From contig NZ_PVTX01000005.1 of NCBI RefSeq assembly GCF_003003075.1, positions 62,001 to 126,000 on the forward strand: 64,000 nt of DNA, in the 5' to 3' direction. The notes below the pieces were generated by a model, which saw nothing but the letters and a program-made list of their open reading frames with translations, made no database searches and was not told the origin of the DNA. The position numbers and the translations under genes are program-made. The stretch's first letter is position 1, and the number at the start of each line of letters is the position of its first letter. The DNA comes from Isoptericola halotolerans. Its GTDB lineage: Bacteria; Actinomycetota; Actinomycetes; Actinomycetales; Cellulomonadaceae. Below are positions 57,653 to 58,448 of this stretch, in pieces.

Positions 57653-57697
57653 GTCAACCTCGGTTGACAAACGGTGCGAGCGTCAACGAAGGTTGAC
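57653..57697 (+). promoter_or_regulatory. two GTCAAC-N4-GTTGAC palindromes before the HTH/Clp-N operon
   Basis: Two perfect 6+4+6 palindromes (57653-57668 and 57682-57697) with centres 29 bp apart; the second ends 2 nt before the start codon. The first contains TTGACA, a possible -35. Their location makes them likely autoregulatory operators for the HTH protein encoded immediately downstream. Confidence 0.75.
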
Positions 57698-57699
57698 GC

Positions 57700-57903
57700 A
57701 TGACGGAACAGACGCTCGCCGCGGCGTCCGGTGGCGATCCCACGCAGGGACTGCGAGCCGTGCGGTCGCTCCGAGAGCTCGCCGACCGGCTCGAGACGCT
57801 GCAGGTCCGCCGCGCCCGCGAGCTCGGCTGGTCGTGGCAGGAGATCGCCGACCAGCTCGGCGTCAGCAAGCAGGCGGTCCACAAGAAGCACGGGAGGCAG
57901 TGA
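57700..57903 (+). CDS. small HTH protein of a ClpC2-like pair
   Basis: A 67-residue protein: an N-terminal helix (LRAVRSLRELADRLETLQV) followed by a helix-turn-helix (GWSWQEIADQLGVSKQAVHKK). The ATG at 57700 has GAAGG 7 nt upstream. Its stop overlaps the next ATG as TGATG. The same order, a short HTH then a Clp N-domain, is found in one chain in mycobacterial ClpC2; here it is split in two. It probably binds the two palindromes just upstream of its start and represses the operon. Confidence 0.82.
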   Translation: MTEQTLAAASGGDPTQGLRAVRSLRELADRLETLQVRRARELGWSWQEIADQLGVSKQAVHKKHGRQ

Positions 57904-58448
57904 TGTTCGAGAGGTTCAGCAAGGAAGCGCGCGCCGTCGTCGTCGCGGCCCAGACGGTGGCGCGCGAGGCCTGCTCGCCGGCCGTCGACACCCGGCACGT
58001 CCTCGTCGCGCTCGCCGGCTCCCCCGGCGCGGCCGCGGCGGGGCTGCACGACGCCGGCCTGGAACCCGCCGCCGTCGCCCGGACGGTGCGCGACGACGTC
58101 GAGGCCGGCGCGCTCGACGCCGAGGCGCTCTCCTCGATCGGCATCGACCTCGACAGCGTGCGCCGGGAGACCGACGCGACGTTCGGCCGGGGTGCGCTCG
58201 CCCGTGCCGGCCGCCGAGCCCGCACGGGCCACGTGCCCTTCGCGCCGGAGGCGAAGAAGGCGCTCGAGCTCGCCCTGCGAGAGACGGTCCGGCTCGGTGA
58301 CAAGGGCATCGACGGCAGCCACCTGCTGCTCGGGATCCTGCGCGCCGACTGCTCCGGCGGGCGCGCGCTGGAGCGGGCGCTGCACGGCGCGGGCACCGAC
58401 GTGGCCGCCCTGCGCGCCACCGTCGAGCAGCGCCGCCGGGCGGCCTGA
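57903..58448 (+). CDS. stand-alone Clp N-domain protein (ClpC2-like)
   Basis: A 181-residue protein consisting of the two helical repeats of a Clp N-terminal domain and no ATPase module. It begins MFERFSKEARAVVVAAQ, the same pattern as the start of ClpC1, so Phe2 is kept. The second repeat has GHVPFAPEAKKALELALRE with Phe113 at the position of ClpC1 Phe80; these two aromatics form the cyclomarin-binding pocket in ClpC1. The region between the repeats is longer than in ClpC1. Likely roles are decoy or sensor for ClpC1-directed antibiotics or damaged proteins, or an adaptor. Translation is coupled to the HTH gene by TGATG. Confidence 0.82.
   Translation: MFERFSKEARAVVVAAQTVAREACSPAVDTRHVLVALAGSPGAAAAGLHDAGLEPAAVARTVRDDVEAGALDAEALSSIGIDLDSVRRETDATFGRGALARAGRRARTGHVPFAPEAKKALELALRETVRLGDKGIDGSHLLLGILRADCSGGRALERALHGAGTDVAALRATVEQRRRAA

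What the first reader, a model, noticed from the sequence alone, without database searches (positions are those of the whole stretch)
57653..58448. Split ClpC2-like HTH + Clp N-domain operon with twin operators
Sequence: a 67-residue HTH protein and a 181-residue stand-alone Clp N-domain protein overlap as TGATG, preceded by two perfect GTCAAC-N4-GTTGAC palindromes, the second ending 2 nt before the start. Family knowledge: mycobacterial ClpC2 joins an HTH-like segment and a ClpC1-like N-domain in one ~250-residue chain, represses its own gene, and is released by ClpC1-targeting antibiotics such as cyclomarin. The combined length here (248) and order match, and the two aromatics equivalent to ClpC1 Phe2 and Phe80 (Phe2, Phe113) are present. 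Inference: this is a two-protein version in which sensor and DNA-binding parts are separate chains, allowing relief of repression by dissociation.
Basis: partly seen in the sequence, partly recalled or inferred. Interest (0 to 1): 0.75.

Follow-up and report, generated by a model that had tools for sequence, protein, structure and literature searches.

The report
Two-gene self-repressing Clp-decoy operon
This actinobacterium carries a two-gene operon that looks like a split version of the mycobacterial antibiotic-sponge gene ClpC2: a small DNA-binding protein that very probably shuts off its own promoter, and beside it a free-standing copy of the docking domain of the ClpC protease.

Summary
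Two perfect GTCAAC-N4-GTTGAC sites (57653-57668, 57682-57697) precede a 67-aa HTH gene that overlaps by one base a 181-aa stand-alone ClpC-type N-domain gene; no other perfect site exists in the 3.85-Mb genome. The split is no error: 132 of 133 HTH loci of the first set are split, from Isoptericola to Streptomyces, and 124 of 129 unique loci carry twin N4 sites 27-29 bp apart. Fused ClpC2 genes have N5 sites (21 of 21) and coexist with the split operon in some genomes. Recognition-helix residues co-vary with operator bases and spacer, and some HTH genes without Clp_N keep the sites, so the HTH chain most likely reads the operator. The published ClpC2 model put DNA binding in the Clp_N part, but its two crystals end just before, and start after, the recognition helix. 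Pocket phenylalanines are kept (72 and 71 of 74). Inducer and contact between the chains are untested. New variant of a known kind.

The parts
57653..57668 (.). distal operator GTCAAC-N4-GTTGAC
   Evidence: perfect; twin N4 sites in 124 of 129 unique loci
57664..57669 (+). -35 hexamer TTGACA formed by the right arm of the distal operator
   Evidence: TTGACA or TTGACG in 121 of 124 loci with two sites
57682..57697 (.). proximal operator GTCAAC-N4-GTTGAC, ends 2 nt before the start codon
   Evidence: perfect
57688..57693 (+). candidate -10 (GAAGGT, 18 nt after -35), weak in the window; TANNNT at this place in 101 of 124 relatives
   Evidence: implies a leaderless mRNA (inference)
57700..57903 (+). 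HTH protein, 67 aa: predicted autorepressor
   Evidence: D29 and R40 align with the ClpC2 D46-R57 dimer salt-bridge pair
57868..57891 (+). codons of the predicted recognition helix (residues 57-64)
   Evidence: AlphaFold2 model helix 57-64; co-varies with operator bases
57892..57897 (+). Shine-Dalgarno-like GGGAGG before the second gene
   Evidence: sequence
57903..58448 (+). stand-alone ClpC-type N-domain protein, 181 aa
   Evidence: Clp_N; model matches ClpC1 N-domain, Foldseek E 9e-9
57906..57908 (+). codon of F2 (ClpC1 F2 / ClpC2 F96 equivalent)
   Evidence: F in 72 of 74 aligned relatives
58239..58241 (+). codon of F113 (ClpC1 F80 / ClpC2 F172 equivalent)
   Evidence: F in 71 of 74
58266..58268 (+). 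codon of E122 (ClpC1 E89 / ClpC2 E181 equivalent)
   Evidence: E in 54 of 74

Best explanation
It is a two-chain, self-repressed Clp-decoy operon that works like mycobacterial ClpC2. A dimer of the 67-aa HTH protein binds each of two operators that cover the -35 and -10 of a leaderless promoter and shuts it off (inferred from conservation, helix-operator covariation and promoter geometry). When repression is lifted, HTH and a free ClpC N-domain are made together by coupled translation. The free N-domain, with the ClpC1 ligand pocket kept, binds what would otherwise occupy ClpC's N-domain (peptide antibiotics, or misfolded or adaptor proteins), so it acts as a sponge, and probably reports back to the HTH chain (this last step is a guess). 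Step confidences: HTH chain reads the operator 0.93; Clp_N chain is a pocket-bearing decoy 0.7; Clp_N directly controls the HTH chain 0.5.
For: Architecture: 132 of 133 HTH loci split; 118 of 128 junctions lie between -1 and +5 nt, 65 of them a 1-nt overlap. Operators: 127 of 129 loci have an N4 site at up to 2 mismatches, 124 have two; all 167 perfect sites have spacer 4; 0 perfect in control stretches. Promoter: TANNNT 17-18 nt after the TTGAC arm in 101 of 124, shuffled control 9; -10 ends 6-7 nt before the start in 95 of 101 (the last T of the -10 usually belongs to the operator arm, so the control is lenient). Covariation: residue 59 A to S/T goes with GTCAG half-sites, 14 of 14 against 0 of 137; K63 to Q goes with a G at half-site position 6, 6 of 7 against 3 of 144; residue 61 Q/F goes with spacer 5, 38 of 38 against 0 of 162, also among HTHs without Clp_N (6 sites of spacer 5 in the QAxFQ, QAxQQ and QAxQM classes, 7 of spacer 4 in QAxHK). 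HTH genes without Clp_N that keep twin N4 sites: L224, L225, L227, L309, L312. The fused ClpC2 homologue aligns with the HTH through the recognition helix (hhalign 96.7%, E 3.3e-10); the PDB 8ADA chain ends at residue 72, just before it, and 8AD9 starts at 94 (PMC10030653). Pocket: F2 72/74, F113 71/74; the fold is that of the ClpC1 N-domain.
Against: PMC10030653 reports that a ClpC2 R185A/R189A mutant in the Clp_N part binds operator less well; the R185 equivalent (R126) is kept in 70 of 74 split proteins, though ClpC1 has an Arg there too; the R189 equivalent is kept in only 27 of 74. Counted as independent changes on supported branches the covariation is thin: 4 and 1 pairs (6 and 3 on all branches), none in the opposite direction, sign test not significant; 2 and 1 (10 and 2 on all branches). 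L273 and L290 have perfect twin N4 sites before an HTH with a different helix and were dropped. Of 7 solo HTHs with the QAxHK helix, 3 have twin sites, 1 has one and 3 have none. 32 of 159 split Clp_N proteins lack one or both pocket Phe. The window's own -10 is poor. The HTH model has no significant PDB fold match (0 of 502 at E up to 0.001). No ligand, induction or binding data exist here.
Confidence: 0.7

Rival explanations
1. HTH alone represses; the Clp_N protein never touches it. Induction comes from another route, for example the HTH protein is itself turned over by ClpCP, so the operon reports ClpC activity.
For: Some HTH genes with no Clp_N partner keep the same twin operators (L224, L225, L227; L309, L312), so repression need not involve Clp_N.
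Against: The pairing is kept in 132 of 133 loci of the first set, and fused ClpC2 links the two physically.
Confidence: 0.3
2. The Clp_N part makes the specific DNA contacts, as proposed for ClpC2 (R185/R189), and the HTH part only dimerises.
For: Published mutant EMSA (PMC10030653); R126 kept in 70 of 74.
Against: Helix-operator covariation; same operators where no Clp_N was found; R189 equivalent kept in 27 of 74; neither published ClpC2 crystal of that paper contains the recognition helix.
Confidence: 0.06
3. The Clp_N protein is a general stress holdase or regulator of ClpC adaptors and substrates, with antibiotics irrelevant.
For: PMC10030653 discusses mild heat induction of clpC2 and a holdase role; ClpC N-domain structures with MecA and with phospho-arginine are listed.
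Against: Patchy presence, read from close matches (12 of 18 genomes of the genus, 9 of 18 others of the family, 2 of 22 of other families in the order, 3 if a weaker frame in G049 counts), suits an accessory protective function better than core proteostasis; not decisive.
Confidence: 0.35
4. A ClpC2 gene broken by a frameshift or sequencing error.
For: The two ORFs lie in different frames.
Against: Same split in 132 of 133 loci, with a ribosome-binding site and, in the window and most relatives, an M-F-E-R-F start.
Confidence: 0.01
5. A toxin-antitoxin pair, since the related HTH protein RelI is an antitoxin.
For: RelI is an HTH protein with partial similarity to ClpC2 (PMC13284704, passages).
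Against: Partner is a ClpC-type N-domain, no toxin fold seen; no PADLOC hit.
Confidence: 0.02

Closest known systems
Mycobacterial ClpC2 (Rv2667 type; PMC10030653, sections 6, 7, 10, 11, 13 read)
   Same: HTH-bearing dimer part, then ClpC-like N-domain; same GTCAAC/GTTGAC half-site, often doubled, just before the ORF; pocket F/F/E kept; the D46-R57 pair aligns with D29-R40.
   Different: One chain there, two here; spacer 5 there, 4 here; helix QAAQK there, QAVHK here; the two forms coexist in some genomes.
RelI antitoxin of RelS-RelI (PMC13284704, passages only)
   Same: Small HTH protein related to ClpC2's HTH region, encoded beside a partner protein.
   Different: Partner is a Rel-like toxin, not Clp_N; toxin gene first.
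ClpC1 N-terminal domain
   Same: Fold, F2/F80/E89 pocket.
   Different: No ATPase rings; longer; separate small gene.
HTH plus PF00144 (beta-lactamase-family) operons, L224 and L225
   Same: Same HTH family and twin N4 operators.
   Different: Partner is a PF00144 protein.

Membership tests
ClpC2 (fused self-repressing Clp decoy) | HTH/dimer segment and ClpC-like N-domain in one chain | tested here: not met
   Two ORFs, TGATG junction; split in 132 of 133 loci
ClpC2 (fused self-repressing Clp decoy) | operator CGTCAAC-n5-GTTGACG next to the start codon | tested here: not met
   Same half-sites and position but spacer 4, as in 124 of 129 unique loci; n5 in 21 of 21 fused loci
ClpC2 (fused self-repressing Clp decoy) | Phe-Phe-Glu cyclomarin pocket | tested here: met
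   F2, F113, E122 in the window; 72, 71, 54 of 74
ClpC2 (fused self-repressing Clp decoy) | homologous HTH segment | tested here: met
   hhalign 96.7%, E 3.3e-10, 40% over 50 columns
ClpC2 (fused self-repressing Clp decoy) | represses own promoter, released by cyclomarin | not testable with these tools
   needs EMSA and reporter
Clp_N (PF02861), ClpC type | Clp_N profile and ClpC rather than ClpB kinship | tested here: met
   41.6 bits; in PDB best chain 3fh2 E 6.4e-20, ClpC1 chains from 5e-19, ClpB 0.0015
HTH repressor | helix-turn-helix with recognition helix | tested here: met
   HTH_23; model helices 46-53 and 57-64, pLDDT 90; fold search itself not significant

The most novel reading that the evidence does not exclude
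The HTH plus twin-operator unit is a portable sensor-repressor cassette that Actinomycetes pair with free-standing mimics of antibiotic targets: Clp_N for ClpC-directed peptides, a PF00144 (serine beta-lactamase/PBP-like) fold for penicillin-like drugs, each a self-regulated sponge; and ClpC2's DNA reading lies in its HTH helix, not where it was published.
Probability: 0.2. Interest if true: 0.85.

Novelty: new variant of a known kind. Interest (0 to 1): 0.62.

Why it matters
ClpC2 blunts cyclomarin-type antitubercular peptides. A two-chain form, found in many harmless Actinomycete genera, separates repressor from ligand-binding domain, so which part reads DNA and how a ligand relieves repression becomes directly testable. 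The helix-operator covariation challenges the published DNA-binding site. The operon also suggests that many antibiotic-producing genera carry inducible ClpC decoys.

Tried and rejected
Sequencing error or pseudogene: rejected. Phage origin: no relative in viral contigs with P0001 (17 stretches matched a pattern, none confirmed). Defence system: no PADLOC hit. ClpC3 identity: I suspected PDB 8b9o was M. smegmatis ClpC3; it is titled ClpC2 and scores no better against a split N-domain than ClpC1 does. Whether ClpC3 (MSMEG_3761) is a split form stays open, because Hoi et al. 2023 is not held. 'Trp44 docks in the Clp_N pocket': W44 is in 142 of 149 split HTHs, 0 of 41 without Clp_N, 0 of 36 fused, but W44 persists where pocket Phe are lost, so not supported; the residue-44 labels printed are partly wrong (its pattern caught an earlier G), those are the ones used. 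N-domain tree: ClpC1 rows group at 100, fused rows at only 6.7, one split clade not rejected (AU p 0.934), with a long ClpB branch, so ancestry of split against fused is unresolved. Fold search of the HTH: nothing significant.

Selection to bear in mind: loci are best matches to split proteins, so fused ones would show only in deeper searches; the set holds some duplicate loci, and 'split' there means a Clp_N match on the same strand within 3 kb (the largest gap printed is 178 nt). The 129 unique loci had an HTH profile score of at least 80; L023 among them has no intact Clp_N. One search used 25 genomes chosen for many matches; fetched 60 of its hits. 'Without Clp_N' means no profile match within 600 nt downstream.

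Full report
OBSERVATION. The two palindromes are perfect, 29 bp apart, and are the only perfect matches in the whole 3.85-Mb genome (52 sites per strand at up to 2 mismatches, 12 for the reversed control pattern, one other site at 1 mismatch). The operon sits between genes that I read as sucCD and pcrA/uvrD from their translations (names recalled, not searched), both on the other strand. The genome also has two long frames, 876 and 887 codons, with double Clp_N matches, which I read as ClpC and ClpB.

THE SPLIT IS REAL AND COMMON. Using profiles built from 23 HTH and 22 Clp_N proteins, 133 of 140 loci L006-L145 hold the HTH; 132 are split, none fused, and one (L023) has a broken Clp_N frame; the 7 others, without HTH, were brought in by matches in long ATPase-size frames. 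The set includes some duplicates and is drawn from the best matches to split proteins. Over the class, 263 of 394 genomes have an HTH match at E up to 0.001, not all of them split. Of 128 junctions, 65 overlap by one base and 118 lie between -1 and +5. Presence is patchy: counting Clp_N matches clearly better than the ClpC background, 12 of 18 genomes of the genus (one with the broken frame; G007 and G015 are incomplete), 9 of 18 others of the family, and 2 of 22 of other families in the order (3 if a weaker 217-codon frame in G049 counts).

RELATION TO CLPC2. In a genus reached through G059, whose fused proteins match the M. tuberculosis ClpC2 structures (L171: 8ADA E 6.7e-37, 8AD9 E 2.4e-65), 33 of 40 genomes have an HTH match. 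The 21 fused loci L155-L175 all have two perfect sites with spacer 5. Five of the 40 genomes carry a split operon (L146-L150). Four of these (G103, G450, G451, G452) also show HTH and Clp_N matches in one open frame elsewhere; the fifth, G464, has a 241-codon frame with an HTH match, not examined further. In the further set of 88 loci L206-L293 there were 33 split (22 with twin N4 sites at up to 2 mismatches of GTCAAC), 15 fused and 40 without Clp_N; 12 of the 15 fused have twin spacer-5 sites at up to 2 mismatches, L266 has one, L258 and L263 none. So split and fused are related forms of one kind, told apart by spacer. Which came first is unresolved.

OPERATOR AND PROMOTER. Among 129 unique loci, 127 have an N4 site and 124 have two, 27-29 bp apart; the near one ends 2-4 nt before the start in 119; all 167 perfect sites have spacer 4; the control stretches inside the Clp_N gene hold no perfect site (the two misses are L074 and L147, for L147 the chosen start was probably wrong since one search finds its site). 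The distal right arm is the -35 (TTGACA or TTGACG in 121 of 124) and TANNNT follows at 17-18 nt in 101 of 124, against 9 in shuffled controls, ending 6-7 nt before the start codon in 95 of 101; since the last T usually belongs to the operator arm this control is lenient. The window has a perfect -35 but a weak -10. A protein on both sites would cover the whole promoter.

WHICH CHAIN READS THE OPERATOR. Over 233 non-redundant HTH loci (9 loci whose helix did not fit the motif were dropped, among them the exceptions L273 and L290) the helix class predicts the site: QAxHK, 139 loci (132 split, 7 without Clp_N), 252 of 252 sites spacer 4, half-sites GTCAAC 423 and GTCAAT 73 of 504; QAxQK, 32 loci, all fused, 62 of 62 sites spacer 5, 124 of 124 GTCAAC; QTxHR, 7 loci, GTCAGC in 21 of 26 half-sites; QSxHA, 5 loci, GTCAGT in 11 of 16; QAxHQ, 7 loci, GTCAAG in 12 of 24. 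Not every locus has a site (10 of 139 QAxHK have none). On 151 split loci with a site the two residue-base links are 14/14 against 0/137 and 6/7 against 3/144. Related rows inflate such counts: on supported branches there are only 4 and 1 independent pairs, none against, not significant (2 and 1). Among 40 loci without Clp_N, five have twin N4 sites: L224, L225, L227 and the two exceptions L273 and L290, which have another helix; L309 and L312 add two more. Solo HTHs with the usual helix but no twin sites also exist (L235, L239, L246, L247). The genomes of L273 and L290 hold L235 and L239, whose proteins may act there in trans (inference). The published ClpC2 work located DNA binding in the C-terminal domain through a double Arg mutant and found dimer formation important (PMC10030653). 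Its N-terminal crystal ends at V72 and its C-terminal one starts at 94; the aligned recognition helix is about 73-81, so it was in neither. An HTH region in ClpC2 was noted later (PMC13284704, passages). I conclude that the HTH chain reads the operator, with the Arg mutant as the main published evidence to the contrary.

THE CLP_N CHAIN. Its model (pLDDT 94) matches ClpC1 N-domains solved with cyclomarin, rufomycin, ecumicin and lassomycin (62 of 182 matches at E up to 0.001, best 9e-9). Among 74 aligned relatives at 38% mean column identity F2 is kept in 72, F113 in 71, E122 in 54, R126 in 70, R130 in 27. In the wider 159, F2 is kept in 139, F113 in 129, and 32 lack one or both, 23 of these among the loci from L206 on (alignment of the most divergent ones is unsure). 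This fits a ligand-binding decoy but does not name the ligand.

LITERATURE. Searches for Clp N-terminal domain with HTH, Streptomyces and ClpC (0 papers), Clp_N with HTH, Actinobacteria and operon (1 paper, unrelated passage), ClpC2 with Streptomyces, cyclomarin and resistance (6 papers), ClpC2 with operator, palindrome and leaderless (only PMC10030653) and Clp protease N-terminal domain with HTH showed no description of the split operon in what I saw; the library is open-access only and I opened few of the listed papers. A 2026 study (PMC12913811, passages) finds that only desoxycyclomarin, not ecumicin or ilamycin, raises ClpC2, so ligand specificity should be tested case by case.

Noticed in passing
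L224, L225 (and by motif L309, L312): The same HTH family with twin GTCAAC-N4-GTTGAC-type operators directly precedes a beta-lactamase-family (PF00144) gene instead of Clp_N; Pfam was run on L224 and L225 only.
   Followed up: partly
window 57829-57831 (HTH residue W44): Trp in the GWSW turn is in 142 of 149 split HTHs but 0 of 41 HTHs without Clp_N and 0 of 36 fused ones; it persists where the Clp_N pocket is lost.
   Followed up: partly
L151-L154: HTH proteins in frames of 212-236 codons without Clp_N in the ClpC2-bearing genus; three of four have spacer-5 sites with a GTCAAG arm.
   Followed up: partly
L273, L290: Perfect twin N4 operators before a related gene with a quite different recognition helix; possible regulation in trans by L235/L239.
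   Followed up: no
L221, L230, L231, L233, L238, L240, L241, L242, L244: Divergent split operons whose operators changed to GTCAGC or GTCAGT together with the helix, with Clp_N partners that lack at least one pocket Phe: perhaps sensors for other ligands. L025 and L048 show GTCAGC with the pocket kept.
   Followed up: partly
L023: Split operon in a same-genus genome whose Clp_N reading frame is broken while the HTH and an operator remain.
   Followed up: no
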